A stretch of 64,000 bases of DNA. It comes from Ochrobactrum quorumnocens (GTDB taxonomy: Bacteria; Pseudomonadota; Alphaproteobacteria; Rhizobiales; Rhizobiaceae). Of the stretch, positions 41,791 through 64,000 are shown in pieces. The notes below the pieces were generated by a model that saw only the letters and a list, made by a program, of their open reading frames with translations, had not been told where the DNA came from and searched no databases. The number at the start of each line of letters is the position of its first letter. Position 1 is the stretch's first letter. A program made the translations under genes and the position numbers. The DNA is taken from the NCBI RefSeq assembly GCF_002278035.1, contig NZ_CP022603.1:1431501-1495500 (forward strand), in the 5' to 3' direction.

Positions 41791-41791
41791 C

Positions 41792-47990: not shown

Positions 47991-48081
47991 CGCGGGTTTA
48001 CAGACGTGCGCGAAAAGGCTGCTTTTGGCAACCAGACCTGCGACACTCCGGGACACCCCGCCCGTGGACGTTGTTTTGTCA

Positions 48082-48705: not shown

Positions 48706-50574
48706 ATGAGTTTCAGATATCCCTGGCAAAGACTGGCTTTGTTACCGCGTGTCGGTAAGCAGATCATACTTCTGCTGAGCGACTGCCTTTTGTTGTTGCT
48801 CAGTGCCTATCTCGCCTTTGTTATGCGTCTTGGCTTTGTTTTTATCCCAACGCAGACGCAGATTTTCCTGATCGCCATCGCTCCGGCTCTGGCTATTCCA
48901 GTCTTTGTTCGTTTTGGTCTTTATCGAGCGATTATTCGCTATCTCGCCGAACGGGCCATCTGGCCGATTTTTCAGGCAACGGCGATCGCGGCGCTCTTCT
49001 GGGTGGCGCTGGTCTTTCTTATGGAATCCTATGGCGGCTCTGGTTTGCCGCGTTCGGTTCCGCTGCTCTACTGGCTTTTGAGCACTGTCCTTGTTTCGGC
49101 GAGCCGCTTTGGTGCAAAATGGCTTCTACGCAGTGCTGAAACCAGCAAGGTCTATTCAAGTACCGCGCTGATTATTGGCGTGGGCGAACCCGGACGCCAA
49201 CTGGCGACAGCACTGAGAAGCCATAGCGATACACATGTGATCGGTTTTGTGGACCCGACGGGCCAGCTCAGTGGAATGGATATTATCGGGCTTCGCGTCT
49301 ATGATGTATCTCAGATCCCCAACCTGATCGAAAACTTTGGAATTAGTCAGGTCGTCATTTCTGAGCCGGAACTGGATCAGAAGCAGCGGCAGGAGTTTGC
49401 GCGTCTGCTTGGCCGTCTCCCCGTCAGTACGCGTATTCTGCCCCCAATCGCTGATCTGACTGCGGGCAAATATCTTGTCAGCGCTCTGCGCAATGTCGAG
49501 ATTGACGATTTGCTTGGGCGCTCGCCTGTACCGCCAGATGTCGATCTCCTCCGTGAAGTTGTCGAAGGCCGACGCATCATGGTGACGGGCGCTGGCGGGT
49601 CGATAGGTAGTCAGCTTTGCCGCACAATTGCACAGTGGAATCCCAGCTGTATCGTGCTGTTTGAATCCAGTGAATTTGCACTTTATCAGATCGAGCGGCA
49701 GCTACGTCAGATGGCACCTTGTGTTGTCATTCCGGTGCTTGGCACAGTCGCAAACCAGCATTGCGTTGAAAAAGCAATTCAAACACACGCTGTTGATACG
49801 GTCTATCATTGCGCGGCCTATAAGCATGTGCCGCTTGTCGAACAAAACCCGCTGGTCGGTATCAGCAACAATGTGTTTGGAACGCTGAACGTTGCAGCGG
49901 CAGCGCTTGCGACCGATGTCGAACGGATGGTGCTGATTTCATCTGACAAGGCCGTACGGCCAACGAATGTCATGGGCGCGACAAAGCGCTGGGCGGAACT
50001 TGTCGTTTATTACTACGGAACACTCGCTGAAAAGGCGGGCCAACATAAGTCGTTCTATTCCGTTCGCTTCGGCAATGTTCTGGGCTCTAACGGTTCAGTG
50101 GTTCCGCTTTTCCGCGAACAGATTGCCAATGGTGGACCGATTACGCTCACACACGAAGACATGACGCGTTATTTCATGTCGATCAAGGAAGCAGCCGAGC
50201 TCATCGTGCAATCCGGTGCAATTGCCAAATCCGGCGATACCGTACTTCTCGAAATGGGTGATCCAGTCAAGGTTCGTGATCTGGCCGAGAATATGATCCT
50301 GCTTGCAGGGCTGACGGTGCGTAGCGCAGACAATCCCGATGGTGATATTGCGATCGAGGTGACGGGCATTCGCGAAGGCGAGAAGATGTATGAAGAGCTT
50401 TTCTACGATCCATCTCAGGTTCAGACGACGCGCCACCCCAAAATCATGCGCGCTCCCAAGGGTCAGAAGGTTGCTGTGGATGTCCCTAGAAGCCTTGATA
50501 GCCTTCGTGCTGCGATGGAGACAGAAGATGTCAACGCTGTCCGCACAGTTCTGTTTGATGTCATAACTTCCTGA
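48706..50574 (+). CDS. wbkD: membrane nucleotide-sugar epimerase/dehydratase (WbkD/WbpM/CapD-like)
   Basis: A 622-residue enzyme with four membrane helices in the first 130 residues, a nucleotide-binding CoA-like domain (SSTALIIGVGEPGRQLATAL at about 150), and a C-terminal short-chain dehydrogenase domain with TGAGGSIGSQLCRTI (NAD fold) and SSDKAVRPTNVMGATKRWAE, where the Met-Gly-Ala-Thr-Lys replaces the usual YxxxK as in WbpM/FlaA1. It makes a 4-keto-6-deoxy UDP-sugar for surface polysaccharide. The gene converges on a wbkF-like gene with a 14-bp stop overlap. The WbkD name is by analogy with Brucella. Confidence 0.85.
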   Translation: MSFRYPWQRLALLPRVGKQIILLLSDCLLLLLSAYLAFVMRLGFVFIPTQTQIFLIAIAPALAIPVFVRFGLYRAIIRYLAERAIWPIFQATAIAALFWVALVFLMESYGGSGLPRSVPLLYWLLSTVLVSASRFGAKWLLRSAETSKVYSSTALIIGVGEPGRQLATALRSHSDTHVIGFVDPTGQLSGMDIIGLRVYDVSQIPNLIENFGISQVVISEPELDQKQRQEFARLLGRLPVSTRILPPIADLTAGKYLVSALRNVEIDDLLGRSPVPPDVDLLREVVEGRRIMVTGAGGSIGSQLCRTIAQWNPSCIVLFESSEFALYQIERQLRQMAPCVVIPVLGTVANQHCVEKAIQTHAVDTVYHCAAYKHVPLVEQNPLVGISNNVFGTLNVAAAALATDVERMVLISSDKAVRPTNVMGATKRWAELVVYYYGTLAEKAGQHKSFYSVRFGNVLGSNGSVVPLFREQIANGGPITLTHEDMTRYFMSIKEAAELIVQSGAIAKSGDTVLLEMGDPVKVRDLAENMILLAGLTVRSADNPDGDIAIEVTGIREGEKMYEELFYDPSQVQTTRHPKIMRAPKGQKVAVDVPRSLDSLRAAMETEDVNAVRTVLFDVITS

Positions 50575-51568
50575 AACGACCGCGAAAATCGAGCAGCAGC
50601 AAAAGCACGGCTACCACAGCGATAAGCACGAAGATGATCTGCGAAAGCATATGGTCGAAAATCATAATTGCTGCCGCACATGCTGTCAGAATGATATTGA
50701 GCAGGGCGACATGGCTCACCACCTTCCAAACGCTCCATCCGGCCCGTTTGGCGACCTGATAGGCGTGTTTTGAATGTGCTTTCAGAATGTTCTCGCCTGC
50801 CAGACCGCGTAAGATGATCGTCGTGCCGGCATCAAGCACGTAATAGAGCGGCAGAATAAGCGCGACCGCTATATGCGTTTCCCGTGCCAGAAGCAAAAGC
50901 GCGGTTCCGGCAAGCAGCCCCAGCGGAAAGCTGCCGGAATCGCCCAAAAAAACGCTTGCGGGTGGGCGGTTGTAAAAAGCAAACCCGAGAAGCCCGCCCG
51001 CTGTGATTGCAGCGATCGTGCCGCTTTCGATGCCCGCGAGATGAAATGTCGCCAGCAACGCAATTCCAGCCATCGGCACGCCAACGCCTGCAACGGTCAT
51101 ACAATCCAGGCCATCCATGAAATTTGTGACATTGATTGCGGCAACAAGCGTGATGACAATCAGCGTGATCTCTGCCCAATGGGGCAATAGCTCAGGCAAT
51201 AGCCGGAAATCGGGGCCGAGCCCATAAACCACGAGGCATGCGGCCACAAACTGCGAGCCAAAGCGTGTTGTGACGGAAAGCTCGAAACGATCATCAATAC
51301 CTCCGATAACCCAGAGTAATAAACAGGCACCGCTTAGACTGAGGACCAGATCAATAGTTAGGCCAAGATCTGTGCCGAACATTAAAAGCGAGACAATAAT
51401 CGCCGGTATGAGCGCAAGGCCGCCGATTTGCCGGGCGGCGACGCTATGATTGGAGCGCGCATTGAATTTTGCCGCAAGAAAGCTTGCTGGCAGAAGCGCG
51501 GACAAAACATAAAGACCGACGCCGCAAAAAATGGCGCTTGCAAGAAAGGAGACTAGCAGCAAGATCAT
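50561..51568 (-). CDS. wbkF: undecaprenyl-phosphate glycosyl-1-phosphate transferase (WbkF/WecA-like)
   Basis: About 335 residues with ten or eleven hydrophobic segments of the MraY/WecA family. The acidic motifs GGIDDRFEL, NFMDGLDCM and FLGDSGSFPLG and the late HAYQ motif are all present. It starts O-polysaccharide synthesis by loading a sugar phosphate onto the lipid carrier. ATG 51568 is chosen; a TTG 12 nt upstream opens the frame and neither has a good ribosome site. It overlaps the wbkD-like gene tail-to-tail. The name follows the Brucella wbkD-wbkF pairing. Confidence 0.83.
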   Translation of the reverse strand: MILLLVSFLASAIFCGVGLYVLSALLPASFLAAKFNARSNHSVAARQIGGLALIPAIIVSLLMFGTDLGLTIDLVLSLSGACLLLWVIGGIDDRFELSVTTRFGSQFVAACLVVYGLGPDFRLLPELLPHWAEITLIVITLVAAINVTNFMDGLDCMTVAGVGVPMAGIALLATFHLAGIESGTIAAITAGGLLGFAFYNRPPASVFLGDSGSFPLGLLAGTALLLLARETHIAVALILPLYYVLDAGTTIILRGLAGENILKAHSKHAYQVAKRAGWSVWKVVSHVALLNIILTACAAAIMIFDHMLSQIIFVLIAVVAVLLLLLDFRGRFRKL

Positions 51569-51785
51569 TGCAACAACCAATAAAAAATGACTCTGTCATC
51601 GGATTACCAGCTTTGGATGCGAAGGCAAATCCTGTGCTTGTCGGATTTGCGCCACTCATCATACTCTGAGGAAATTCTTTATCCCCAGGCCTCGTAAAGC
51701 TTGTCAGATTTCGTCGATAGGCGATTGCACTTGGCGCGGGGAGCGGCTATAAGCCCGCCCAATCAGTCGCATTGATCTGATTTGT

Positions 51786-51860
51786 TGGGGCGTAGCCAAG
51801 CGGTAAGGCACCGGTTTTTGGTACCGGCATCCCCTGGTTCGAATCCAGGCGCCCCAGCCA
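51786..51860 (+). tRNA. tRNA-Gln (anticodon TTG)
   Basis: A cloverleaf is readable: acceptor TGGGGCG (51786-51792) with CGCCCCA (51850-51856), D arm AGCC..GGTAAGGC, anticodon arm CCGGTTTTTGGTACCGG with TTG in the loop, T arm CTGGTTCGAATCCAG, and an encoded CCA end. It marks the left side of the AT-rich polysaccharide block and is a class of gene often used for island integration. Confidence 0.97.
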
Positions 51861-52454
51861 TGAATTAAGAGCAACATCAGCGGCCTATTGATTTTGTTCA
51901 AATTTCCCTCTGGCTGGGAATCCTCATTATTTTCATATTCGCCGGGCGTGCACTTAACTGTGGCAACGAGCTATGACACATGCCGATTCTGATGAACCGC
52001 GGTTTCGTGTCAGCTCCAGATGACGGATATGACATGGCAGTCAGACATCAGGTTCAGAATCTTCAGCGGCGCGGAAATATTTTCTAATGGCGTCCGCGTC
52101 TCCTCCACACTTTTGGGACGCAATATCGGCGCGCGTCACCTTGCTTTCAGTCTCAAACAACCTGATCGCTGCTGGCGGCGATACTGAGATAAAATAGCTC
52201 GCTAAACACATCAGAATGATGCGCTATAATAAAGAGCACCAAAATTTAAATTACATCAGGATGATTTGGATTTTACCAACCCGCGGCGAATGTGACTGAC
52301 ATTAATGCAGAATAAGGCCCCAAAAGCGCCTCATTCACGGGCGACCAGAGTGTTGACATCGCAGATTTTTTCTTCAATTAACCTATTAAGGCGTTGAATC
52401 CAAATTCATTCCAGAAAGTGACAATCGTGAAAAATAGAAGAGTAGACGGACAAT
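51861..52454. other. non-coding region between tRNA-Gln and wzm
   Basis: No open frame of protein-like character in 594 bp on either strand. Composition falls from ordinary near the tRNA to AT-rich toward 52400. I see no integrase remnant and no repeat of the tRNA 3' end elsewhere in the window. Confidence 0.5.
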
Positions 52455-53309
52455 ATGATGAGCACAGACATTTCTAGTGTAGCTGTGCCTCACGAAGCTG
52501 TAATCGCCGAGCCGACAAAAGGTGCCGCAGTCGCTATTCGCGATATTAGTGAGGCCCTGTTAAAGTATCGACTGGCTTTGATTTTCGGCTGGCAGGATGT
52601 TGCTCAGCGCTATCGCCGCTCTAGGGTAGGTGCTTTCTGGCTTACCTTGAACATGGCTGTGTTTATCGGCGCGCTTGGGTTAATTTTTGGAACGCTTTTT
52701 CAAAGCGAGATGCATGAGTTCCTGCCATATTTGTGTGCGGGCGTTATTACTTGGGGCTTTATCTCTACTTGTCTAAACGAAGGATGTACGACATTTACTT
52801 CTTCTGACGGCATAATTTTACAAGTTCGAATGCCATTGTTCACCCATATAATGCGTGCGGTTTGGCGCAATATAATAATTTTTGCTCATAATATTGTCAT
52901 ATTTCCTGTTCTACTTCTCATTTTCGGCAAAGTAATTAGTTTAAGCGCGCTTTGGGCAATTCCAGGTATTTTATTGTTGATTGTTAACTTAGCTTGGATG
53001 ATGCTTATTCTAGCAACGCTTTGTGCCAGATTTCGAGATATGACCCAAGTGGTAACAAATATTCTGCAAGTACTTTTCTATGCTACTCCTATCATGTGGA
53101 TGGTTAAGATACTGCCCGATCATGTTTCGCGTGCGTTCATCGAATGGAACCCATTTTATCACTTTATCGAGCTAGTAAGAGCTCCGTTGTTCGGTTTTCC
53201 GCCGACTCTGCTTGATTGGACCTTCGGCTTTGCATGTGCGATAATTGGTTGGACCATCGCAATTGTATTTTTCGGGCGGTATCGTTGGCGCGTAGCATAT
53301 TGGTTGTAG
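52455..53309 (+). CDS. wzm: O-polysaccharide ABC exporter permease (Wzm-like)
   Basis: A 284-residue ABC-2-type permease: a 40-residue cytoplasmic start, DVAQRYRRSRVGAFWLTLNM (family entry motif), six hydrophobic segments and IMWMVKILPDHVSRAFIEWNPFYHFIELVRAP near the end. With the ATPase directly downstream it exports the lipid-linked polysaccharide across the inner membrane before ligation to lipid A core. Two adjacent ATG codons start the frame. AT-rich base composition, unlike genes left of the tRNA. Confidence 0.9.
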   Translation: MMSTDISSVAVPHEAVIAEPTKGAAVAIRDISEALLKYRLALIFGWQDVAQRYRRSRVGAFWLTLNMAVFIGALGLIFGTLFQSEMHEFLPYLCAGVITWGFISTCLNEGCTTFTSSDGIILQVRMPLFTHIMRAVWRNIIIFAHNIVIFPVLLLIFGKVISLSALWAIPGILLLIVNLAWMMLILATLCARFRDMTQVVTNILQVLFYATPIMWMVKILPDHVSRAFIEWNPFYHFIELVRAPLFGFPPTLLDWTFGFACAIIGWTIAIVFFGRYRWRVAYWL

Positions 53310-53312
53310 AAA

Positions 53313-54056
53313 ATGAGTTTAATTCAGCTTCAGAATGTTAGCATTGAGTTCCCGATTTACAACTCAACCAGCCGCTCGCTCAAAAATAGAGTCCTTAGCA
53401 TAGCAACGGGTGGTAAAATAGAAAGGCGCACGGACCGCTTAGTGATTGTTCGTGGTCTTGATGATGTTTCCATGACATTTAGGGACGGGGATCGCGTAGG
53501 TTTGATCGGTCATAACGGATCTGGAAAAACTACTCTTCTTCGCGTTTTGTCGGGTATTTATACACCCACTCACGGTAGCTCAGTGATAAACGGTAATTGC
53601 GTATCATTGATTAATATCAATCTGGGTATTGATCCTGATGCAACGGGACGGGAGAATATCCGTCTTCGCTCAGCTATGATGGGAATGTCGCCAAACGAAA
53701 TAGCAGAGAAGTTTGATCAGATTGCGGATTTTTCGGGCCTAGGAGAGTTTCTCGATGTTCCGTTCCGTACCTATTCGTCTGGAATGCAACTAAGATTGGC
53801 TTTTGCTACATCTACTGCCGTTCGCCCTGAAATCCTAATAATGGATGAGTGGCTTTCAACTGGCGATCAGGACTTTAAGGAGCGCGCTAATGGACGTATG
53901 CGCGAGCTGGTGGATTCAACACGAATCTTGATCCTCGCCAGCCATTCGAAAGAATTAATGGAAAAGAATTGTAACCGAGTTATCTGGCTCGAGCATGGCC
54001 GAGTCAAAATGGACGGTATTCCTGGTGACGTTTTACCTGCTTACTTTGGAAATTAG
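53313..54056 (+). CDS. wzt: O-polysaccharide ABC exporter ATP-binding protein (Wzt-like, short form)
   Basis: A 247-residue ATPase: Walker A GHNGSGKTT, LININ(LGIDPDATGREN) loop of polysaccharide exporters, signature YSSGMQLRLAFATS and Walker B ILIMDEWLS with the conserved TGD. It has no C-terminal carbohydrate-binding domain, so chain ends are not recognised by Wzt itself, as in the Brucella type. It starts 3 bp after wzm, forming an exporter operon. Confidence 0.9.
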   Translation: MSLIQLQNVSIEFPIYNSTSRSLKNRVLSIATGGKIERRTDRLVIVRGLDDVSMTFRDGDRVGLIGHNGSGKTTLLRVLSGIYTPTHGSSVINGNCVSLININLGIDPDATGRENIRLRSAMMGMSPNEIAEKFDQIADFSGLGEFLDVPFRTYSSGMQLRLAFATSTAVRPEILIMDEWLSTGDQDFKERANGRMRELVDSTRILILASHSKELMEKNCNRVIWLEHGRVKMDGIPGDVLPAYFGN

Positions 54057-54251
54057 CTAACTCTGTCTAAATGTTGAGCGTTGAAATCGAGTTAGGTGAA
54101 TATCTAATATTTTGAATGCGTTCAATTAGTTCAAAATCCCCCAAGTTCGAGGAATTCAGTTAGAAACTGCGCTCCTTTGTGGGGTCAGCCACTAATGGTT
54201 TCTAGGTCAGCCCTTTTCCATTTAAATCCTAGCGATTGGAATTTCTCCATC

Positions 54252-55928
54252 ATGTCAGAGCTTTCAAGAAGATTTAGGCAACTGTCAAACGCGATCCGTT
54301 ATTTGGCGCGAGGAGACTTTTCCGGGTTTTTTAGCCGCTTAAAGTGGTACGGACGGGAATACTCCCACATCCAATTAAGTCGAAAGTTAGCTAACGGAAA
54401 TGGCATCGTGTGGGGAATTCTTTGCACGCCGCATACACTTTTCATCGCGCAAACAATAGCTGAGCGCTTAGCACACCATGGAATTGAAAGCGAAATTGTA
54501 ACGGGTTCGGTAAAGAGCTATGATCATGATTTCTATATCGTGTTATGTGCTCAGATGTTCAAACGTCTGCCTCCAGCAAACAAAAGATTGATCTTTCAGC
54601 TGGAACAATCTGTAAGTTCTCGATGGTTTACGCCAGAGTACTTGAAGGTGCTCAACGATTCATTCGGAATTCTCGAATATTCGCTAACGAATATCGAATT
54701 TCTTGCCAACAATGGAATAAGCTATCCCAAAGTGCACTATTTACCGATTGGTGCATCGCCGGACGTTGATACTTTAAATGTTAAAGAGCCTAAACAATAT
54801 GACTTTATTTTTTATGGCGATAGTTTGAGTAGTGAAAGAAGGCGAATTTTTCTTAAAAAGCTACAAGAAAAATACAGCGTAAAAGTATGTAATGATTTGT
54901 TTGGTGATGAACTCTACGCCCTCATTCGTAAAGCGAAAATCGTTATCAACATTCACTACTATGAAGGTGCTTTGTTGGAAATGCCCCGCCTATGCGAGTG
55001 TATCTCGTTGGGCGTACCGGTTCTTTCTGAAGGTACCACTGATCAAGTTGAGTATCCTGAACTTGAAGGTGCAGTAAAGTTTTTCAGTCAAGGTTGTGTC
55101 GACAGTATGATGACGCAAGCGTCGGACATGCTGGATAATTTGGCAATGATAGATCTAACGGTTGGAAGCGCGGTTACTGCTAGCGCCGCACGTTTCAATT
55201 TTATGATGGATCGCTTTTTAGTAGCCATTGGAGTAGTTCCAGCCAATATCATTCTCGGCCAACCGATATACATGGTCAAAAAAAGTGACTTTTATGCACT
55301 TTCGCTGCCCGAGACAATAGAACGACGAAGAGCAATAGCGCAGTCGCTGCCAGAGGGCTGTGAATTGTTTGACGGCATTCGACACAGCTTGGGGTGGATC
55401 GGTTGTGGTGGTAGCTTTAGCGCTTTATCACGCTTTGCTCTTGCAAATAATTTGAGTATGCTAACCGTTATTGAAGATGACGTAGAACTTCCAAACGACT
55501 TTAATCATGTCCTTAAAGAGATTAATGAGTATCTCGATGCAAGAAAATCAAGTTGGGATATTTTTTCGGGCTTGATGGCGGATGTGCATCCTTCAGCAAA
55601 AATTCTTGCTGTCGAAGAGGTAGGTGGGCGCACCTATGTCACCATCGATAAGATGACCAGCACAGTGTTTAATATATATAGTAAAAGTGCGTTGGAAATT
55701 ATTTCTCAATGGAATCCTCTCAATACCGATGCTGTGAATAATACTATTGATAGATATTTGGAGCGTCGCGCGGGCCTTCGCGTTGTAGTGACGCTCCCAT
55801 TTATTGCTGGTCATAAGGAGGACGCGACCTCGACTCTTTGGGGCTTCGAAAACGAGCGCTACACTCCAATGATCGCGGAAGCACAGAGGAAAATTGAAGC
55901 GATGGTTCGGGATTGGCAGCTTCTCTAG
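54252..55928 (+). CDS. two-domain glycosyltransferase (GT-B-like plus GT25-like)
   Basis: About 558 residues in two parts. Residues 1-320 contain YDHDFYIVLCAQMFKRLPPANKR, YDFIFYGDSLSSERRRIFL and VINIHYYEGALLEMPRLCECISLGVPVLSE, a CgeB-like GT-B pattern. Residues 340-558 have LPETIERRRAIAQSL and LSMLTVIEDDVELPNDF, the E-D-D motif of LPS GT25-type galactosyltransferases. The start is uncertain: ATG 54252 gives the most natural N-terminus, ATG 54195 and TTG 54177 are also in frame. A bifunctional enzyme adding two sugars in sequence is plausible. Confidence 0.7.
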   Translation: MSELSRRFRQLSNAIRYLARGDFSGFFSRLKWYGREYSHIQLSRKLANGNGIVWGILCTPHTLFIAQTIAERLAHHGIESEIVTGSVKSYDHDFYIVLCAQMFKRLPPANKRLIFQLEQSVSSRWFTPEYLKVLNDSFGILEYSLTNIEFLANNGISYPKVHYLPIGASPDVDTLNVKEPKQYDFIFYGDSLSSERRRIFLKKLQEKYSVKVCNDLFGDELYALIRKAKIVINIHYYEGALLEMPRLCECISLGVPVLSEGTTDQVEYPELEGAVKFFSQGCVDSMMTQASDMLDNLAMIDLTVGSAVTASAARFNFMMDRFLVAIGVVPANIILGQPIYMVKKSDFYALSLPETIERRRAIAQSLPEGCELFDGIRHSLGWIGCGGSFSALSRFALANNLSMLTVIEDDVELPNDFNHVLKEINEYLDARKSSWDIFSGLMADVHPSAKILAVEEVGGRTYVTIDKMTSTVFNIYSKSALEIISQWNPLNTDAVNNTIDRYLERRAGLRVVVTLPFIAGHKEDATSTLWGFENERYTPMIAEAQRKIEAMVRDWQLL

Positions 55929-56305
55929 AGCCCGTTGTATGCGGTTAAACACGGTTTGCAATAATTGATGAGGCTCTTGTCTGAAGTATATCAGTTTATC
56001 TAAGATTTAGTAACTGGTTAGAAAAGCGTAAATAAGATTCTCGGAACCAGTCTTTTCATTTTTTACCTGTGCAATGCGCGGGGTGTTGTTGTTGGATCTG
56101 CCTTTAATAACCTAAGTTGGGCTCTTTCATTGCGCTTCACCAATTCATCGATTTGGGAGATGATTAGATCGATTAGAATTGAAACTGGCAATGTTATTTC
56201 TCAATAAAGCCTTGTCGGTTGTAGCGTTTACTGCAATAGCAATCGGAATTTGGGCTTCCGACAAACGATAAATCAAGCGTGGCGCAAAAATGGAGCAATC
56301 TGACT
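55929..56305. other. AT-rich gap with a possible 26-residue hydrophobic peptide
   Basis: Mostly non-coding. At 56191-56271 a plus-strand ATG frame encodes 26 residues (MLFLNKALSVVAFTAIAIGI plus ASDKR-like tail) with one membrane helix. No ribosome site is evident, so I do not call it a gene. The rest may hold the promoter of the next gene. Confidence 0.3.
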
Positions 56306-57403
56306 GTGATAATCAATTCGAGTAAGAATATCGCTTACATCGGGCGAATGGACCATTTACGTTTCTATGCAGCAGCACTTGTAGTCGTATACCACGGGTT
56401 CGTAGAAAGTATTGGTCATTTCGGAGAGGTCAGTTTGAATCCAATAAAAGGCCTTTTCATGCAGGGTCATACAGGTGTTGGCCTTTTTCTTGTACTAAGT
56501 GGGTTCTTATTTGGAAGCATCGGAGATGGTAGGGAAATACAATATGGAAAATATCTCTTTAATCGTATAACCAGAATATATCCTCTATATATATTTGCTA
56601 TAGTAATAGCATTATCGATGAACTATACAGAGTATTCATCTGTGCAAACATTGCTTTTGACATTTCCAGTTTTTAGTCTCGTTGAACTGTCAAAGATACC
56701 AATGTTTGGCCAGCTCTGGACTATTGCGGTTGAGTTTCAATTCTATTTAATTTTCCCGTTTATTATGATGGCTGTCAATCGTCGAGGCATACGTTACGCG
56801 TTTCTTTTACTCGCATTAATGGTTTTTCTGAAACTCTGGATCTTTCTTATGAAGGGGACAGTGCGCGAAATCTCTTACATGACTCTTGTAGGACGCTTGG
56901 ATCAATTTTTAATTGGGATGATCTTCGCCCACTTTATGAGCAGGTATAAAGAAGCCCTGCGAAACCCGTTCCACCTTATTTTGTCGGCAGCTATTGTATT
57001 GGCCATAATGTTTACATTTAACTTGGCTGGAGGTTATTTTGGCACGCCCCATCTCAGCATCTGGGTGGTTTGGCCCACAATTGAAGCAATCATGTGGGGA
57101 TACTTTGCTTGTTCATATATGCGCTGCTCAATAGATATGCCTCATACGTTGGATAAAGTGGTAAGATTTTTGGGTGAGACTAGCTATTCTATTTATATAA
57201 TGCATATGGTTGCCATATCATTTACGTACAGATTAATCCCTCGTCTACATATTACTGATACGGAAAGATTAGACGCGCTCGTTACATCTTTCCTTATTGC
57301 CTTCCCCGCCTCACTATCTCTGGCAGTGTGTACATTTTTTCTTATTGAGAGGCCTTTTTTTCATTTCAAGAAAAAGTATACAACGTCCATTAACGCATCT
57401 TAA
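56306..57403 (+). CDS. acyltransferase family 3 membrane protein (OafA-like)
   Basis: About 365 residues with ten hydrophobic segments of the acyltransferase-3 family. The motif MDHLRFYAAALVVVYHG near residue 15 is the family opening (RxxRxxAAxxVxxxH), GHTGVGLFLVLSGFLFG is the second hallmark, and FGQLWTIAVEFQFYLIFP the third. Such proteins O-acetylate sugars on the periplasmic side and would decorate the exported glycan. GTG 56306 has GGAG 10 nt upstream; GTG 56279 is an alternative start. Confidence 0.85.
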   Translation: MIINSSKNIAYIGRMDHLRFYAAALVVVYHGFVESIGHFGEVSLNPIKGLFMQGHTGVGLFLVLSGFLFGSIGDGREIQYGKYLFNRITRIYPLYIFAIVIALSMNYTEYSSVQTLLLTFPVFSLVELSKIPMFGQLWTIAVEFQFYLIFPFIMMAVNRRGIRYAFLLLALMVFLKLWIFLMKGTVREISYMTLVGRLDQFLIGMIFAHFMSRYKEALRNPFHLILSAAIVLAIMFTFNLAGGYFGTPHLSIWVVWPTIEAIMWGYFACSYMRCSIDMPHTLDKVVRFLGETSYSIYIMHMVAISFTYRLIPRLHITDTERLDALVTSFLIAFPASLSLAVCTFFLIERPFFHFKKKYTTSINAS

Positions 57404-57744
57404 CGCTGCTTTTGCTAGGTAGTCACCGATTGTTCAAAGCCAATTTGAGAGGAAGGTCGTTGTCTCGTTCGCAGGCCAAATGTAGTGAGAGAAGAAGCTT
57501 GCAAAAACACATCTATTGTAAAAGTTAAACGCAATTCAAACGGACGGAGTTAAAAGTGAGTTGCAATGATGTGGTGCAAAAAAGAAAAACAGAGCCACTT
57601 CCTTGTGTGGGTAGGTGTCTTTTTCATACCAAAATTTGGTGAGATTGAAGATTCGGACACTGAATCAATGTTGTTGATATCAATATAAAATATTAACCCG
57701 AGATCGAAGTCACGTTAGTTTCCATCGAATTAATCGTCCATACA
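57404..57744. other. AT-rich gap before the methyltransferase gene
   Basis: No reading frame of protein-like character. Probably promoter and leader of the four-gene run from 57745; no clear terminator seen. Confidence 0.4.
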
Positions 57745-58641
57745 ATGCAAACCTACCGATATAGGGAGAGACCTTTGGTTAATCATTCTGAGATTTTTGG
57801 GTGGGCATTAACGGAGTGCCTTTTTGCACTCCCTGCAACTCACACACCCAACACATTGCTCGGTCATATACCGCCGATTAGCCTTTTAACGCGGCTCTCC
57901 ACTCCCAATGTCATCGTTGATCTTGGTGTAGCGAATAGCTCTGTTCTGGAAGCAGTCAGTTCGGCAGTCCGTCATTTCAAACTAGATACGTCCTGCTATG
58001 GAATATTCGATGGTAAAAACACTGAAGCTAACTCCCAAATCGAGCATATTTTGAGGAGTGTTGCCAATAATTATCCGCAATCCACCGTAACGGTTGGCGA
58101 AATGGAAAAAAGCCATGAATTATTTGATGATGGTTCCGTTGACCTACTGACGATTTCCCATCTTCATGACAGAGAACAAATCTCCACAGTTATGGACAGA
58201 TGGATGCCCAAAATGTCGACTGATGGGATAGTTATTATTACAACTGTCAATCATCCGAATCCGATCGATCCTGTGCGATTATACTGGCATAATGTCAAAA
58301 ATAATTATCCGTCGTTCGAGATGTCTCACCAGTTTGGCTTAGGTATTCTTTTCGCGGGACCAGAACAAAAGCCGTTAATCAGGGAGTTGATGGATAACTT
58401 GTCGAACAATGCCTATTTTTCCACGCTGTTCAAATCGATGTGCGAGTATAACGGTGGAATCATGCTTGATCGATTAACTCGCGGTTCAAATTCAGCGACT
58501 AGCTCTTTGCAGCCTACAAGGTCTCACTATATTGCTGAACGTGCCGATCTGCTATTCAAACATAGTCGAGCATGGAAGCTATTAGCGCCATTTCTACGCC
58601 GAATTAGCGGTTTTCGCAGACTGGAAGAGGCTACGCGATGA
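57745..58641 (+). CDS. SAM-dependent methyltransferase-like protein
   Basis: A 298-residue protein with a Rossmann-type SAM motif NVIVDLGVANSSVLEAV at about 55-70, DDGSVDLLTISHLHDRE in place of motif II and WMPKMSTDGIVIITTV in place of motif III. These suit the methyltransferase-24 class often fused to glycosyltransferases in O-antigen loci. Start ATG 57745, or TTG 57775 which has GGGAGAG upstream. The last bases overlap the next gene by 4 bp. Acceptor unknown. Confidence 0.7.
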   Translation: MQTYRYRERPLVNHSEIFGWALTECLFALPATHTPNTLLGHIPPISLLTRLSTPNVIVDLGVANSSVLEAVSSAVRHFKLDTSCYGIFDGKNTEANSQIEHILRSVANNYPQSTVTVGEMEKSHELFDDGSVDLLTISHLHDREQISTVMDRWMPKMSTDGIVIITTVNHPNPIDPVRLYWHNVKNNYPSFEMSHQFGLGILFAGPEQKPLIRELMDNLSNNAYFSTLFKSMCEYNGGIMLDRLTRGSNSATSSLQPTRSHYIAERADLLFKHSRAWKLLAPFLRRISGFRRLEEATR

Positions 58642-59528
58642 AGACGCGCGTTGCTTGTCTAGGGCACAGAGTTTACTTCGAAAACCACTTCTGTGAGTTA
58701 AAGTCACGTTTCTTTGACGTTGCCTGGTTTGACTACGATCATTTTTCCAATGTTGTCTATGACGATATAAGATTGTTTAGGCCGGACATAACCCTAATTT
58801 ATCGACCAGAATTACATAAAGCTGCGAATCTAACCGCCATTCCTGGGTATAAGATAGGCTTTTCTACAGAACCTCTTCCCAAAATTGCAGTCGACGGTAC
58901 CGTAAAAACATCCTCGGAAACGGACCGCAGGCTTTCGATGATTTCTCATCTGCAGAAGGATGGCTTTAATCGAATTTATCACTACGATAAGGGCTCGAAA
59001 TCTTTCATAGAACAAAACGGCCTTCCTATTGATGATTATGCTGTCATACCCGTAAACACTAATTACTTTAATCCTAGCCGCATGCCCAAGCAAAAGTGGG
59101 ACATTCTTTTTCTTGGTAAGGCGACGGAGAGACGGTCAAGGATTCTATCCCGTTTGAAAAACCATAACGTGTCATTTCTTTGGATTGAACATGGGGTTAG
59201 CGGGAGTGAACTAGGAAAATTATTCAAGCGCTCCCGGTGCATCCTCAACATACATGCGGATGATATCCAAGCACTAGCACCTCGTGTTTATCTAGCTGCT
59301 GCTTGTGGTGTACCCGTATTGACGGATCCGACCGGTGACACGGACTTCCCTTTTTCCAGATTAGTTCGTACGGTAGATATGAACGAGCTATCACTCAATG
59401 TAGTGAAATATAATGTAGAGGATGTGAAGGATTCGGGCGTGTTATCTGATCGAGAGTATCTAGATAGATGTCTAGATGACATCTCTGTAGAACGTTTTTT
59501 GATGAATACTATAGATAAGATTATTTGA
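58638..59528 (+). CDS. CgeB-like glycosyltransferase
   Basis: A 296-residue GT-B-type protein of the CgeB/DUF3880 group. It lacks membrane segments. PDITLIYRPELHKAANL, PVNTNYFNPSRMPKQKWDILFLGKATERRSRIL and RVYLAAACGVPVLTD are the recognisable pieces. ATGA overlap with the upstream gene. Sugar donor and acceptor unknown; part of the island's assembly set. Confidence 0.7.
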   Translation: MKTRVACLGHRVYFENHFCELKSRFFDVAWFDYDHFSNVVYDDIRLFRPDITLIYRPELHKAANLTAIPGYKIGFSTEPLPKIAVDGTVKTSSETDRRLSMISHLQKDGFNRIYHYDKGSKSFIEQNGLPIDDYAVIPVNTNYFNPSRMPKQKWDILFLGKATERRSRILSRLKNHNVSFLWIEHGVSGSELGKLFKRSRCILNIHADDIQALAPRVYLAAACGVPVLTDPTGDTDFPFSRLVRTVDMNELSLNVVKYNVEDVKDSGVLSDREYLDRCLDDISVERFLMNTIDKII

Positions 59529-59539
59529 ACGAGGCCACT

Positions 59540-61081
59540 ATGAGTAACGTCGAGATCAACGAATTTCATATGCCGATTTCATATAAAGAACGGCTTGAAA
59601 ATGATTATTTTGATGACCGTTCTTTTTTAAGTAAGATAGTTGTTCATCAGCCGGAGATTTACTACGCGGCTGATTTCATATTTCGTCAAACTGAACGTAG
59701 TATAATTGTTGATATTGGATCAGGTAACGGTAAGAAACTTGCTTCAATAGGTTCCACAGCAAAGAAAAAATATGCGATTGACTTCGGCGTAAACGTTGCT
59801 TTTTTTAAAGAGCATTATCCCGAATGCGTAACTTTTGACCTAGATCTAGAGAATTCCAACCGGAATCAATTGCCAAAAATTGATTGGAAAGCGTCAGTTG
59901 TTATCTGTGCTGACGTGATTGAACATCTTAGGTCTCCGTTGGGGCTAATTGATTGTTTAAAGCATATATACGATTCTGGTGGCATTATTGTTTTATCGAC
60001 CCCTGACCGCGAAAAGCTGCACGGATATTTGCATGATGGTCCACCTGTAAATCCGGCGCATGTTCGGGAATGGACGCTGTCTGAGCTCTCCGCTTTATTT
60101 GCAGCACATAGCATGAAGCCCGCATTCGCTGGCTACTCCATAAGCGATAATATGAAACGGAAAAAGTACAACAGCGTCATTATATTGGATCGTGCGATCA
60201 ATAGGAATTGCGAAGATCTTTCTATAAGTCCTTTAGGAATCGTATCATGCTTTAATGACTCGGACATCATTGAGCAGTTGTCTAGAAAGCACCTGGACAG
60301 CGGAATAGATCTTCATTTTCTCGATAACTGGTCAAATGATGGCACATTTGAAATACTTCAAAACTTACAAGTAGAATATCCCAGCAGAGTTACACTCGAA
60401 AGATTCCCTTCTGAGCCTACAACGGAATACGTTTGGAGAGCGATACTAACGCGTAAAGCTGAAATCGGCTTTGGTTTTATGGGGCGCTGGATAATTCATA
60501 TCGATAGTGACGAGTTACGTACATCACCATGGTCAGACATCTCATTAAGCCGTGGGCTCGCAATCGCCCAAGAATACGGAAGCAGTGCTGTTGAATTTGG
60601 CGTTGTCGAGTATCCACCGCTAGATGACGATTTCTGTGGTAAAATTGATCCTGTTGAGCATTTCACGCACTGCTATTTTTCCAAGCAGCCATCCCATTTT
60701 CTGCAGACCAAAGCGTGGCTGCAAGGAAGCCATTTGATTGACCTTTCATCAACAGGCGGGCATCACGCGCAGTTCCCAGGAAAGCGAGTTTTTCCATATA
60801 GATTTATTCTTGACCATTTTCCTATTCGGTCGACGCAGCACGGGTTGAAGAAAGTCCTGAAAGATCGAAAGCCGCGATTTAGCCAACAAGAAGTGAACGA
60901 TCTCGGGTGGCACACCCATTATGATATCGTCTCAGACGGTTATCGGTTCCTCAGTCTGAAGGAATTTCATATTGAGCACGGTGCTGACTTCTTGGTGAAC
61001 AACGTTCTTGAAATTGTCACGGACGTCGTTCTTCAACGAATGCAGGGGCGCTTAGTTTTCCCCAGCAATAATGATTTTTAG
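59540..61081 (+). CDS. methyltransferase-glycosyltransferase fusion protein
   Basis: A 513-residue two-domain protein. Residues 40-210 form a class I SAM methyltransferase: SIIVDIGSGNGKKLASIG, KYAIDFGVNVAFF, VVICADVIEHLRSPLGLID and GGIIVLSTPDREKLHG. From about 225 a GT2/GT92-like glycosyltransferase follows: IVSCFNDSDIIEQLSRKHL..LHFLDNWSNDGTFEIL and WIIHIDSDELRTSP. The fused layout suggests coupled sugar transfer and methylation, for example end-capping. ATG 59540 has GAGG upstream; a TTG at 59525 opens the frame. Confidence 0.78.
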   Translation: MSNVEINEFHMPISYKERLENDYFDDRSFLSKIVVHQPEIYYAADFIFRQTERSIIVDIGSGNGKKLASIGSTAKKKYAIDFGVNVAFFKEHYPECVTFDLDLENSNRNQLPKIDWKASVVICADVIEHLRSPLGLIDCLKHIYDSGGIIVLSTPDREKLHGYLHDGPPVNPAHVREWTLSELSALFAAHSMKPAFAGYSISDNMKRKKYNSVIILDRAINRNCEDLSISPLGIVSCFNDSDIIEQLSRKHLDSGIDLHFLDNWSNDGTFEILQNLQVEYPSRVTLERFPSEPTTEYVWRAILTRKAEIGFGFMGRWIIHIDSDELRTSPWSDISLSRGLAIAQEYGSSAVEFGVVEYPPLDDDFCGKIDPVEHFTHCYFSKQPSHFLQTKAWLQGSHLIDLSSTGGHHAQFPGKRVFPYRFILDHFPIRSTQHGLKKVLKDRKPRFSQQEVNDLGWHTHYDIVSDGYRFLSLKEFHIEHGADFLVNNVLEIVTDVVLQRMQGRLVFPSNNDF

Positions 61082-61488
61082 TACAGCATCTGGAGTATTT
61101 TGCATAAGCTAAAACAACAATTGCAACTCTATTAAACGGTGGCGAGTAGCTTTCATATTACAGTGGCATAGGGCGTTCAGAACGTAATGGCCCGATTGCC
61201 ACCACCTGTTGAAGCAAGGCCTCGTGACGTAAGACACGTCTTTAGCGACGTCGTTAAAGACGTGTCTTGAGATTGAGGTCGACGGTGCGGACGGAGACTG
61301 GGCCGCGAACGCCAATGTCGGTGGAGGGTGGTAAAGAAGTGGTTCGGTAAAGTTCCTACATGCCTTGCACTGAGCCCCAACATTGGACCGCCGAGAATTA
61401 GAATTATCCGGCTCTCACCCCAATGGCTGGCTGATAACGCCACCGGGATTATGCAAGGCAATCGGTACGTTATATCCGATTGCCGAAT
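61082..61488. other. unassigned region with a 38-bp near-perfect palindrome
   Basis: Between the last glycan gene and the IS4 element lies 407 bp with no gene I can support. At 61231-61268 AAGACACGTCTTTAGCGAC is followed by GTCGTTAAAGACGTGTCTT, arms of 19 bp with one mismatch and no loop. The right part is GC-richer than the glycan genes and may be older IS or chromosomal debris. Confidence 0.6.
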
Positions 61489-63017
61489 GGTAATCCCCCC
61501 GGCAATTAACTATCTAATGCACACATCTCTGAGCAACTAGCATTTCTTGTAAAAGACTGATTCACTGAGTGCTGATTTGCTCAGGAGGTTGAGATGGGCA
61601 TCAACGGTATTGAATTGAAGCGGTTTTCAGTCGGCAGATTTGGCGATCTGCGGCTAGAAAAAAGGGGACGTGGTGCCATGAGGCGTTGGTGGCTCGGCCA
61701 GGCTCATGTATTCATGAGCTTGCTAAAGGCCAGCGGCGCGGCGAGGTTGGCTTTGGGCGATTTTTACGCAACCCCTCGGTGACAGTTGCAGCTTTGAGCG
61801 AAGCCGCAGGCAATAGAACTAGGGAGCGTGTCGCGGGCCGCGATATTCTGGCCATCCAGGACACTAGCGAGATTGTGCTGGGCGGGCCGAAGTTGCGGAA
61901 GGCGGGTTTTGGGCCAGTCGGTCGTGGTGGCTTTCTGGGCGGAGTTCTGCTGCATCCTGTGCTGGCGGTCGATGCAATGAGTGGTGAGTTGGTGGGTCTC
62001 GCCGACATTGCGGTGTGGAACCGCGGTAAACGAAATGACTTGCATCACGCACGCAGGCCCCTGGAGCAAAAGGAATCCCAGAAATGGCTCAATGGCGCAA
62101 GGCGGGCCAGCGAGGTTTTGGCCAAGGCTTTGCGCATCACGGTCGTTTCAGACAGGGAAAGCGATCTTTATGAGGATTTTGCACTGAAGCCTGAGAATGT
62201 GCAGGTGCTGATCCGAGCCAGTGCCAACCGCAACCTTGTTAACGGCGAGAAGTTGTTTGGATATGCTTCCCGTTTGCCGGAAGCTGAACGCATAAATGTC
62301 ACGATCCCCGCCAGTCCTGGCAGGCCAATCCGAGAGGTGCGTCTGGCGCTGCGCTTCGGCCCCGTGACGATCAAGAGACCGGAACGCGGCATGCCAAGCC
62401 TTGACCTCAAATGCTTGCCTGAGATGGTCAAACTTAATCTGGTTGATATCTGTGAAATTGATCCCCCGAATGGTGCAGAGCCCATCCACTGGCGCTTGCT
62501 CACCAGCCATGAGGTTGAAGACTTTTGCATGGCCCATCTGATGCTGGATTTTTACCGCAAGCGCTGGCTTATCGAAGAATATTTCCGCACCCTGAAGTCG
62601 GCGGGGTTCAAGATAGAGAATGCCAGGATGAGTGACCCGAAGGTCTTCATGAATTTCGCTGCCCTTGCAGCCATTGCTGCAGTGACGGTCACCCAGATGC
62701 TGCGCGCCCGCGACAATCCTTCCGGTCAGGCACTCGTCGATGCCTTTGATCCTGATGACAGGCCTTTGCTTCTCGCAATCTGTAAGGACTACGAAGGCGA
62801 GGCTCCAACCGCACGCCAGAAAAATCCTCATCCGCCGAACACGTTGGCTTTTGCCACTTGGATCATCGCAAGGCTTGGAGCTTGGACCGGCTACTACGGC
62901 AAGCCTGGCCCCGCAACGCTCTCACGCGGCCTCAGGCGTTATTATGAGATCAAATACGGTGCACGAATATCAGCGGGAATTGTGTGAATCGCATAGGTTA
63001 AAAACGGGGGGATTACC
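61489..63017 (+). mobile_element. IS4-family insertion sequence, about 1.53 kb
   Basis: GGTAATCCCCCCG at 61489-61501 is inverted at the other end (CGGGGGGATTACC, 63005-63017), with weaker matching inwards to about 37 bp (TTAAC..CACAC on both sides). The enclosed gene is an IS4-type transposase. The immediate flanks do not repeat each other, so no target duplication is visible. Confidence 0.85.
61594..62987 (+). pseudogene. IS4-family transposase with an apparent N-terminal frameshift
   Basis: The first frame starts ATG 61594 (MGINGIELKRFSVGRFGDLR), after a strong AGGAGG. Homology then moves one base back at the run of six A at 61658-61663, continuing as ..HEALVARPGSCIHELAKGQ.. to 62987. The main part has DILAIQDTSEI, VVSDRESDLYEDF and the IS4 signature Y-(2)-R-(3)-E-(6)-K in YRKRWLIEEYFRTLK. 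Either a mutation, a base-call error in the A run, or programmed -1 slippage; IS4 elements do not usually slip, so loss of function is my first reading. Confidence 0.8.
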
Positions 63018-63076
63018 TTCTCGACCAAGCGAAAATCCCTTCGACGGACGCTCACGAACCACAGTTAGTAGGGTAC

Positions 63077-64000
63077 TCAATCGAAATGGTTGGTTGGCTT
63101 AAACTTCAGGAATTGGTACAGTTTTCGGACGCTCTTTATTGCCCAGCGACTGGCCTTCCTTTGAGGCAGTGGCACTAACATTTGGTCCGCGGTTTCGTCG
63201 GCCGAAATTGGGGGGGGCTGAGAGGGAAAAAACAGTCGCTGGCTTTGTAAACTGATAGCGGATGCACCAAAGTAGAATGGATGATGTTTTGCCCGCTGAT
63301 ACGGTTTCCCTACAAGCAGCTGGTACTCGGCTTCAAACTGGGGGTAGGGATGTTGCTCCCAAGGCACGTTTGTGGCAGTGCCGCCGTGAACTTGGTGAAA
63401 GGTCGCTTCGCCAAGCAACATTACAGGAATCAGTCCTGTTGTCCCCACTGCCCGATTAAAAAAATCGAGGTTTACATATCCGCCGCCTGGCGTCTGGAAG
63501 CGCCGGTCCAGACCACCAAGGGAGGACCACGCAGATCGCGTCAGAGCGAAGCAGTTACTCTCATTTAACTGCGAAAAGAAGCCGTTGTGCGCCGAGTGTG
63601 CCAACGAAGATATATCAAACAAGCGATAGCCGTCATCTATCCACGCTACGCTGTTCAGCAGTTCGTCCTCAACGGTCTGATTGTATCCTTTTAAGATAGA
63701 ATTGTTTTGAAGTTCCGGCCCAATATGCATTCCAAGCGTATATACGAAAGGATCCTTTAGCGCCTGAAAACAACGATAGATCAGAGCAAGGATGCCCGGT
63801 GAAAGTATCCGCGCGCCATCAATGATGATCACGACGATGTGTGCTTCGCTCCCAGAAGCGTAGTAATTGATAGCATCAACTGGCGAAACACTATCACTGT
63901 AATGTGGCGCATATCGGAACTCGGCGCCGAAAGATCTCACGTCTGCTTCAGGTATTTTTTCAAGTGAGTTGTTATCAATCGCAACAACTTCGTACTGAAT
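63077..64000 (-). CDS. glycosyltransferase family 2-like protein (5' end outside the window)
   Basis: About 307 residues are visible, open to the right edge. YEVVAIDNNSLEKIP and VVIIIDGARILSPGIL correspond to the GT2 nucleotide-sugar fold with the acidic metal site in IIDGA, and NCFALTRSAWSSLGGLDRRF is the acceptor-side motif with the conserved Gly-Gly-x-Asp/Glu. The C-terminal tail is basic. It faces the opposite way to the glycan genes across the IS, showing that the polysaccharide region goes on to the right. Confidence 0.82.
   Translation of the reverse strand: MQYEVVAIDNNSLEKIPEADVRSFGAEFRYAPHYSDSVSPVDAINYYASGSEAHIVVIIIDGARILSPGILALIYRCFQALKDPFVYTLGMHIGPELQNNSILKGYNQTVEDELLNSVAWIDDGYRLFDISSLAHSAHNGFFSQLNESNCFALTRSAWSSLGGLDRRFQTPGGGYVNLDFFNRAVGTTGLIPVMLLGEATFHQVHGGTATNVPWEQHPYPQFEAEYQLLVGKPYQRAKHHPFYFGASAISLQSQRLFFPSQPPPISADETADQMLVPLPQRKASRWAIKSVRKLYQFLKFKPTNHFD

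What the first reader, a model, noticed from the sequence alone, without database searches (positions are those of the whole stretch)
51786..64000. AT-rich O-polysaccharide island behind tRNA-Gln with unusual fused enzymes
Seen: a tRNA-Gln, then an abrupt drop in GC content, Wzm/Wzt exporter genes, a two-domain glycosyltransferase, OafA-like acyltransferase, a methyltransferase, a CgeB-like transferase and a methyltransferase-GT2 fusion, closed by an IS4 element and another GT2. Known: Brucella-type O-chains are exported by Wzm/Wzt and built near wbkD/wbkF. The enzyme set here does not contain the perosamine genes (gmd, per) of Brucella inside the window, so the glycan is probably different, possibly methylated and acetylated.
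Basis: partly seen in the sequence, partly recalled or inferred. Interest (0 to 1): 0.75.

Follow-up and report, generated by a model that had tools for sequence, protein, structure and literature searches.

The report
Sulfated-type O-antigen island beside tRNA-Gln
A soil-type relative of Brucella carries, next to a tRNA gene, a gene island that very probably builds a rhamnose-containing surface sugar chain decorated with methyl, acyl and, unexpectedly, sulfate groups.

Summary
In detail: tRNA-Gln at 51786-51860, then GC falls from 54% to 43% over a Wzm/Wzt-led glycan cluster. The window edge cuts it. In the source genome it runs about 19 kb further: more glycosyl- and acyltransferases, three sulfotransferase-like genes, a sulfate-activation set (cysD, cysNC fusion, cysQ), rfbACBD (dTDP-rhamnose) and glmS, then a VirB/TraG/relaxase conjugation module. 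Perosamine genes were not seen there. In B. pituitosa and B. grignonensis a TonB-receptor cluster follows the tRNA directly; here about 66 kb lies between. The island-type cysNC was found in 1 of 35 genus genomes, besides the ordinary copy; its nearest relative found (90%) is named Brucella intermedia. Best reading: an ABC-exported, rhamnose-containing O-chain locus at the known wbkF variable site, carrying a sulfation module. The wbkF hotspot, rhamnose O-antigens and sulfated-glycan clusters are each known; sulfation at this site is the new part, predicted and not shown chemically. The fusions are real, but the methyltransferase-GT2 fusion is common, and the IS4 element does not close the island.

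The parts
48667..50574 (+). wbkD-like nucleotide-sugar dehydratase (conserved left flank, not part of the island)
   Evidence: Pfam Polysacc_synt_2 E 7.6e-114; found near wbkF in 23 of 24 named relatives' loci
50561..51580 (-). wbkF-like polyprenyl-phosphate sugar-1-phosphate transferase (conserved left flank; probable chain initiator)
   Evidence: PF00953 97.2 bits, over cut-off; NCBIfam matches below cut-off; 96% to B. pituitosa
51786..51860 (+). tRNA-Gln(TTG); homology with four relatives ends at its 3' end
   Evidence: homology to L006, L009, L015, L020 stops at 51860/51861
52455..53309 (+). Wzm, ABC-2 exporter permease
   Evidence: PF01061 over cut-off; NF050109 Wzm/RfbD 271 bits, under its equivalog cut-off of 380; 88% to Pseudochrobactrum plasmid protein
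53313..54056 (+). Wzt, ABC exporter ATPase, 247 aa, i.e. without the C-terminal glycan-binding domain of longer Wzt proteins (that comparison is recalled)
   Evidence: PF00005 over cut-off; NF050108 268 bits, under its cut-off of 400; nearest solved chains RfbE-type O-antigen exporter 9qhw/9qfx, E 1e-70
54177..55928 (+). two-domain glycosyltransferase, Glyco_trans_1_2-like half plus GT25-like half with invariant EDD
   Evidence: 9 of 394 family genomes at E 1e-60 or better
56279..57403 (+). OafA-like membrane acyltransferase
   Evidence: PF01757 115 bits
57745..58641 (+). methyltransferase-like protein
   Evidence: PF13578 23.8 bits, under cut-off 26.3
   Evidence: PF13524 30.2 bits, over cut-off
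59525..61081 (+). methyltransferase-GT2 fusion
   Evidence: PF13489 38.4 bits over cut-off, PF13704 25.6 bits under cut-off; family profile reaches solved methyltransferases and, weakly, GT2 enzymes; 293 homologues
61489..63017 (+). IS4-family element with 13 bp terminal repeats and no visible target-site duplication; sits inside the island
   Evidence: NF033590 over cut-off; repeats; three near-full copies on contig C4 at 98-100%
63077..64000 (-). putative glycosyltransferase (gene continues to 64099), first gene of the part that holds the sulfation genes
   Evidence: ORF; no family match

Best explanation
This is the left part of an O-polysaccharide locus seated at the wbkD-wbkF-tRNA-Gln variable site. 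Shown: gene content, order and base composition; that the relatives examined carry other gene sets at this place (six of 24 share Wzm/Wzt); and a second, divergent cysNC found in this one of 35 genus genomes. Inferred: WbkF (with WbkD's sugar) primes undecaprenyl phosphate; the two-domain GT, the Glyco_trans_1_2-type GT, the methyltransferase-GT2 protein and the other GTs build a chain from dTDP-rhamnose (rfbACBD) and probably a HexNAc (extra glmS); CysD/CysNC make PAPS, three sulfotransferases place sulfate on the chain and CysQ clears PAP; acyl- and methyltransferases add further groups; the short Wzt with Wzm exports the chain (without a terminal-cap reader, as recalled for Klebsiella galactan); ligation to lipid A-core gives a sulfated smooth LPS.
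For: Sulfate set over curated cut-offs: CysD 526 bits (cut-off 397), CysN/CysC fusion 969 (715), APS kinase domain 242 (139), CysQ 272 (229). ST3 is over Pfam cut-offs for Sulfotransfer_1 and _3; in the PDB its best match is 3rnl, a sulfotransferase (E 8e-15), then heparan sulfate glucosamine 3-O-sulfotransferases (best E 2e-10). ST1 and ST2 score 26.0 and 23.1 bits against a cut-off of 27 but match both simple PAPS-binding-type patterns; ST3 matched only the second pattern as I wrote it (motifs recalled). Island CysNC only in G000 of 35 genomes, beside the ordinary copy at C3:213999; Sulfotransfer_3 in 2 of 35. RfbA and RfbB over NCBIfam, RfbC and RfbD over Pfam cut-offs. No KpsC/S-type (PF05159) match in the genome; the control rang in E. 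coli and B. subtilis of 14. Published: PAPS genes plus sulfotransferases in a glycan cluster are called a hallmark of sulfated polysaccharide (PMC11641403, passages); M. loti sulfated LPS needs nodPQ (as told in review PMC6192434, passage).
Against: No chemistry was found for this strain. Nothing proves that the chain is LPS rather than another exported glycan; the ligase was not searched for. ST1 and ST2 fall just below Pfam cut-offs, and any of the three could act on something else. The sulfation part (gene GC 0.45-0.50) differs in composition from the Wzm/Wzt part (0.40-0.45), and IS elements or remnants lie between, so the two parts may have different origins or serve two glycans. Of the 24 other genus genomes with this Wzm, 23 have no Sulfotransfer_3 match, so this exporter does not need sulfation.
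Confidence: 0.68

Rival explanations
1. Ordinary rhamnose-type O-antigen locus of atypical Brucella/Ochrobactrum, with the sulfation genes a passenger that acts on another glycan or is silent.
For: Frog Brucella isolates each have a unique set behind conserved wbkF, some with rmlACBD and rfbD/tagH exporters (PMC5353553, passages). The ends of this locus (wzm-wzt-two-domain GT ... GT2-rfbACBD-glmS) recur in G032, which has no Sulfotransfer_3 match. The sulfation part lies between an IS4 copy and a 93% IS4 remnant and has a higher GC than the left part.
Against: The sulfation genes are open frames and interleave with glycosyl- and acyltransferase genes rather than forming a separate block.
Confidence: 0.2
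2. A capsule or exopolysaccharide locus, not LPS.
For: The closest published cluster by content that I read (Cobetia marina: dTDP-Rha, ABC exporter, cysNC/cysD/cysQ, sulfotransferases) makes a sulfated capsule (PMC11766843, passages).
Against: No Capsule_synth (KpsC/S) match in the genome; Wzm/Wzt are nearest to RfbD/RfbE O-antigen types; wbkF/wbkD adjoin.
Confidence: 0.1
3. A defunct island: disrupted by IS elements, producing no glycan.
For: IS4, IS630-type and IS4/5-type transposase genes or pieces sit inside it.
Against: The 23 island genes translated (two of them transposases) have no internal stop; cysNC, wzm and the two-domain GT have full-length homologues.
Confidence: 0.07

Closest known systems
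Variable wbk region of atypical Brucella (BO2, B13-0095, African bullfrog isolates)
   Same: Conserved flank up to wbkF, then a strain-specific O-antigen set; rmlACBD in some; RfbD/TagH-type exporter; B13-0095 and BO2 lack the perosamine genes (PMC5353553 and PMC5040101, passages)
   Different: No sulfate activation or sulfotransferase genes are named in the passages read; their DNA was not compared here
Sulfated capsule clusters of Cobetia marina KMM 1449 and Vibrio sp. KMM 8419
   Same: dTDP-rhamnose genes, ABC exporter, cysN/C and cysD (cysQ in Cobetia; second copies in Vibrio), sulfotransferase genes (PMC11766843, PMC11641403, passages)
   Different: Marine gammaproteobacteria; Kps-type capsule exporter; the glycan chemistry was done there
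nodPQ-dependent sulfated surface polysaccharide of Mesorhizobium loti; LpsS of Sinorhizobium meliloti
   Same: Dedicated PAPS enzymes feeding LPS sulfation in alphaproteobacteria (PMC6192434, PMC12445080, passages)
   Different: LpsS is listed there as an Stf0-family sulfotransferase; here the three genes are of Sulfotransfer_1/_3 type and lie in an O-antigen-type island
Plasmid pPB07_3 of Pseudochrobactrum algeriensis
   Same: wzm-wzt-two-domain GT at 88/90/74% protein identity, then rfbACBD, on a 33.6 kb plasmid
   Different: No match to this island's cys or sulfotransferase proteins and none annotated; other middle genes (pyruvyltransferase, galE)
Klebsiella-type galactan Wzm/Wzt (NF050108/NF050109)
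   Same: Best NCBIfam matches for both exporter subunits
   Different: Below the equivalog cut-offs; the glycan genes differ (recalled)

Membership tests
ABC-exporter-dependent O-antigen locus | Wzm and Wzt encoded with the glycan genes | tested here: met
ABC-exporter-dependent O-antigen locus | polyprenyl-phosphate sugar-1-phosphate transferase at hand | tested here: met
   wbkF-like gene adjoins, PF00953 over cut-off
ABC-exporter-dependent O-antigen locus | no Wzx/Wzy in the locus | tested here: met
   no such family among the 19 island proteins scanned with Pfam (17, RfbC and RfbD; transposases and glmS not counted); one of them, 63077-64099, matches no family; small ORFs were not scanned
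ABC-exporter-dependent O-antigen locus | chain joined to lipid A-core (ligase, smooth LPS) | not tested
   no ligase search was made; needs chemistry
Sulfated-polysaccharide gene cluster | PAPS synthesis genes in the cluster | tested here: met
   CysD, CysNC, CysQ over NCBIfam cut-offs
Sulfated-polysaccharide gene cluster | sulfotransferase genes in the cluster | tested here: met
   ST3 over Pfam cut-offs; ST1 and ST2 just under, with PAPS-binding-type patterns
Sulfated-polysaccharide gene cluster | sulfate on the glycan | not testable with these tools
   needs chemical analysis
wbk-site rhamnose O-antigen of atypical Brucella | variable set behind conserved wbkF, with rmlACBD | tested here: met
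Classical Brucella N-formylperosamine O-chain locus | gmd and per in the locus | tested here: not met
   gmd: only match over cut-off in the genome is at C4:63444. per: not searched as a family; none recognised among the ORFs read to C2:1533500
Kps-type (group 2/3) capsule | KpsC/KpsS enzymes | tested here: not met
   0 matches to PF05159 in the genome; control rang in 2 of 14 genomes, E. coli among them
tRNA-integrated conjugative element (ICE) | T4SS, coupling protein, relaxase | tested here: met
   VirB4 and TraG-Ti over NCBIfam cut-offs; MobA_MobL relaxase 223 bits
tRNA-integrated conjugative element (ICE) | flanking copy of the tRNA 3' end (attR) and an integrase | tested here: not met
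   no second copy with at most 3 mismatches in 25 near the right end; local matches no better than shuffled. Integrase: none recognised by eye among the ORFs listed, most of which were not family-scanned

The most novel reading that the evidence does not exclude
Sulfated O-antigens are a moving trait in the Brucella/Ochrobactrum clade: a cassette of dedicated PAPS enzymes and three sulfotransferases has been inserted into a standard rhamnose O-antigen locus at the wbkF/tRNA-Gln site, travels with plasmid-type conjugation genes, and recurs in some Brucella intermedia strains. If so, it would be the first sulfated O-chain of the clade that my searches know of, convergent with rhizobial LPS sulfation.
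Probability: 0.35. Interest if true: 0.62.

Novelty: new variant of a known kind. Interest (0 to 1): 0.45.

Why it matters
O-chain chemistry shapes how Brucella-clade bacteria meet phages, plants, serum and diagnostic antibodies (general knowledge). A sulfated, strongly anionic O-chain would be a new antigen class in this clade and would show that the site next to wbkF, already known to differ from isolate to isolate, can take up an entire decoration system with relatives in rhizobia. It also gives a simple genomic marker (a second, divergent cysNC near wbkF) to look for in other isolates.

Tried and rejected
Rejected or weakened: (1) unusual fusion as the main novelty: the methyltransferase-GT2 protein has 293 homologues; the 120 listed, itself aside, are 34-86% identical. 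(2) Composite IS4 transposon carrying the sulfation genes: the intact IS4 is 98-100% identical to three copies on C4, whereas the remnant on the other side is 93%, so they are of different age; the intact copy shows no target-site duplication, which only hints at rearrangement. (3) A clean tRNA-integrated ICE: no attR. (4) Duplicated housekeeping cysNC as source: the tree puts the island copy outside the Brucella + Phyllobacterium housekeeping clade (100/99 for that clade), but the island row is a long branch and its own place is unsure. (5) Insertion direction: the 66 kb could be gain here or loss/rearrangement in B. pituitosa and B. grignonensis, which keep their own wzm/wzt beyond the TonB cluster; and in L015 and L020 a wzm also lies within about 0.4 kb of the tRNA, so that neighbourhood is not unique to this genome. 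Wzm is 76% to B. pituitosa, 89% to B. rhizosphaerae and 88% to the Pseudochrobactrum plasmid, whereas wbkF/wbkD/metE are 96/93/92% and 91/95/94% to the first two: about equal kinship but unequal wzm, which favours exchange without proving it. Led nowhere: solved-structure searches with the two fusions and ST2 as single sequences (no match); papers on sulfated LPS in Ochrobactrum or Brucella (13 papers, all listed; 397 papers, 15 listed; 87 papers, 15 listed; 21, all listed; titles and abstract starts seen, none on a sulfated O-antigen of this clade).
Full report
WHERE IT IS. The window is G000:C2:1431501-1495500 of a 5.65 Mb, four-contig genome. By wbkF the nearest named relative found is Brucella (Ochrobactrum) pituitosa CCUG 50899, 96% at protein level; B. 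rhizosphaerae and B. grignonensis follow at 91%. The species was not determined. Below, positions above 64000 are window-equivalent (C2 position minus 1431500).

THE OBSERVATION. tRNA-Gln is at 51786-51860. GC falls from 0.541 (40000-51860) to 0.429 (51861-61300), is 0.475 at 63000-69000, 0.484 at 71500-77700 and 0.548 in the conjugation module at 84000-103000. Families of the in-window genes are and in the parts list.

BEYOND THE EDGE. Own-genome stretches with Pfam and NCBIfam give: putative GT 63077-64099(-), no family; ST1 64101-64892(-), Sulfotransfer_3 26.0 bits, cut-off 27; acyltransferase 65157-66158(+), over cut-off; GT-D-like 66224-67165(-), over cut-off; ST2 67404-68534(+), Sulfotransfer_3 23.1 bits; IS630-type and IS4/5-type transposase pieces 69129-70787; cysD 71592-72491(+); cysNC fusion 72491-74362(+); cysQ about 74358-75173(+); ST3 75281-76021(+), Sulfotransfer_1 and _3 over cut-off; IS4 remnant 76324-76787; GT2 76839-77675(-); rfbA, rfbC, rfbB, rfbD 77796-81188(+); glmS 81406-83229(+); then VirB-type genes including VirB4 (86000-88402), TraG (95707-97635, -) and a MobA_MobL relaxase ORF of 1545 aa (98368-103005).

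A DEDICATED SULFATION SET. CysD, CysNC, the APS kinase domain and CysQ all pass curated cut-offs. All 35 genus genomes searched have a CysN/CysC match. Apart from G000 the best matches are 58-60% identical, except in three genomes (G002, G009, G022) where only pieces matched, at 55-65%. Only G000 shows the island copy, and it also has the ordinary one at C3:213999. Only CysNC was searched this way, not CysD or CysQ. Sulfotransfer_3 is found in 2 of 35 genomes: G000, three times and all in the island, and G007 once, a strong match whose surroundings I did not read. So the extra CysNC and the three sulfotransferases were seen together in this genome alone. The nearest database relatives are 90% (CysNC, P0241, where only the 8000 candidates sharing most words were scored) and 80% (ST2, P0122), both named Brucella intermedia; whether they come from one strain is not known. 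After these come CysNC proteins at 63-68% (the named ones mostly from Rhizobium, Martelella, Mesorhizobium, Shinella and kin) and ST2 relatives at 36-51% (60% for one over half the length), many of the named ones Mesorhizobium. In the family-wide search, 25 of 394 genomes have an ST3 match at E 1e-15 or better, the others than G000 at 26-41% identity. Of 312 plasmid records with a related CysNC, 15 were listed and I looked at 7. Five were annotated: 3 of 5 (Shinella pShin-11, S. chiapasense, Neorhizobium) list a sulfotransferase in the stretch read, the S. chiapasense one in a nod cluster (nodA-type, nodB, nodC, nodS, nodU, nodI); Shinella WSC3-e has glycosyltransferases and rfbACBD but no sulfotransferase in view; Hoeflea has a glycosyltransferase but none either; two had no annotation. 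In the PDB, ST3 matches 3rnl (a sulfotransferase, E 8e-15) and then heparan sulfate glucosamine 3-O-sulfotransferases, compatible with a glucosamine acceptor but far from proof.

SITE AND MOBILITY. Of 24 named loci found through wbkF, 23 also have wbkD, 19 have a recognised tRNA-Gln, two have a tRNA with an odd anticodon loop at that place (L006, L012) and three have none there (L010, L011, L013). Wzm/Wzt of this type lie within the fetched flank in 6 of 24 (L006, L007, L009, L012, L015, L020), the two-domain GT in 2 of 24 (L007, cut at the locus end, and L015). At E 1e-5 the acyl-, methyl- and sulfotransferases of this island were found in none, apart from a 28% match of part of the methyltransferase-GT2 protein in L015; flanks were at most 10 kb, so later genes of those loci were not seen. 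Nine loci were compared at nucleotide level: homology stops at 51860/51861, the last base of the tRNA, in L006, L009, L015 and L020; at 51865 in L008; it runs on to about 52160 in L007 and L014; in L010 and L013 it ends before the tRNA. In L006 and L009 a TonB-receptor cluster (Pfam), here at 117.8-124.3 kb, follows the tRNA directly, so about 66 kb more lies between the two here. No attR was found. B. rhizosphaerae carries a phage-integrase-family gene in the 6 kb between the tRNA and its wzm.

CONSERVED ENDS, CHANGING MIDDLE. Pseudochrobactrum plasmid pPB07_3 and genome G032 share the left end (wzm-wzt-two-domain GT) and the right end (rfbACBD; in G032 also GT2 and glmS), with other genes between. 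In G032 wbkF was not found in the 20 kb stretch that holds wzm. Wzm of this type is in 25 of 35 genus genomes at E 1e-60 or better. This is the layout expected of an O-antigen locus whose middle is exchanged. The extra glmS is 99.9% identical over the gene (1833 bp, 2 differences) to the other copy at C2:134932, which suggests recent gene conversion or copying; 3 of 35 genomes have two strong glmS matches and 2 of 35 had none at the threshold used.

THE FUSIONS. The methyltransferase-GT2 protein belongs to a large family (293 homologues; profile). The two-domain GT has a GT25-like C-terminal half with an invariant EDD (11 sequences); its matches to solved GT25-type chains are weak (best E 0.0012); it is rare (9 of 394 family genomes). 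Related loci show other fusions: a protein with methyltransferase, group-1 GT and GT2 matches in L015, and in L078 a methyltransferase domain in the same frame as the two-domain GT. Fused transferases thus recur in such clusters.

LITERATURE. The wbkF variable site and rhamnose O-antigens in frog and BO2 isolates are published (PMC5353553, PMC5040101; passages), as are partly O-acetylated D-fucose O-chains in Ochrobactrum (PMC10888714; passages) and sulfated glycan clusters with a very similar enzyme set in marine bacteria (PMC11641403, PMC11766843; passages). LPS sulfation in rhizobia is cited in PMC6192434 and PMC12445080 (passages). My searches (titles and abstract starts of the papers listed) showed no sulfated O-antigen of Ochrobactrum or Brucella; two of these lists were capped and subscription journals are mostly not held, so this is weak evidence of absence.

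VERDICT. A real O-polysaccharide island at a known hotspot, most likely acquired. The new element is a complete sulfation set. That the product is a sulfated O-chain is inferred.

Noticed in passing
G000:C2:1512906-1514729 and C2:134932-136752: Two glmS copies, 99.9% identical over 1833 bp that begin 10 bases before the gene and stop at its end, with no homology outside; looks like recent gene conversion.
   Followed up: partly
L005 (Pseudochrobactrum algeriensis plasmid pPB07_3, 33.6 kb): A small plasmid with an annotated MobQ relaxase carries an O-antigen-type locus (wzm-wzt, GTs, pyruvyltransferase, rfbACBD), a possible vehicle for such loci.
   Followed up: partly
L021-L023, L025, L027, L029, about 3.4-8.3 kb: In 6 of 9 Phyllobacterium loci a cysD-cysNC-cysQ set lies near the same tRNA-Gln/wbkF site; the tree groups its CysNC with Brucella housekeeping copies, so the link to this island's set may be coincidence.
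   Followed up: partly
G000:C2:1515600-1534505: VirB/TraG/relaxase module right of glmS; a TraG relative is in 12 of 35 genus genomes at E 1e-100 or better, and 4 of the 15 matches hold one in-frame stop. The relaxase ORF has a sub-threshold BID-domain match near its C-terminal side (24.6 bits, cut-off 29.5).
   Followed up: partly
G000:C4:54001-74000: Separate cluster with gmd, an epimerase-family gene, a Poly_export gene and several ORFs that look like glycosyltransferases; probably another surface polysaccharide.
   Followed up: partly
L015:1934-4792 and L078:1474-4452: Larger fusions: methyltransferase with group-1 GT and GT2 matches (953 aa) and a methyltransferase domain joined to the two-domain GT family (993 aa).
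   Followed up: no
window 48066-48335: Cobalamin riboswitch (minus strand) upstream of the metE-like ORF at 45601-47961.
   Followed up: no
L006:9732-9807 and L012:9722-9795: tRNA at the Gln site with an extra or missing base in the anticodon in two assemblies; perhaps sequencing errors.
   Followed up: no
G000:C2:1555821-1570184: Right of the TonB cluster lies another set with a pyruvyltransferase, two group-1 glycosyltransferases and an HlyD/ABC pair, where B. pituitosa has its wzm/wzt.
   Followed up: partly
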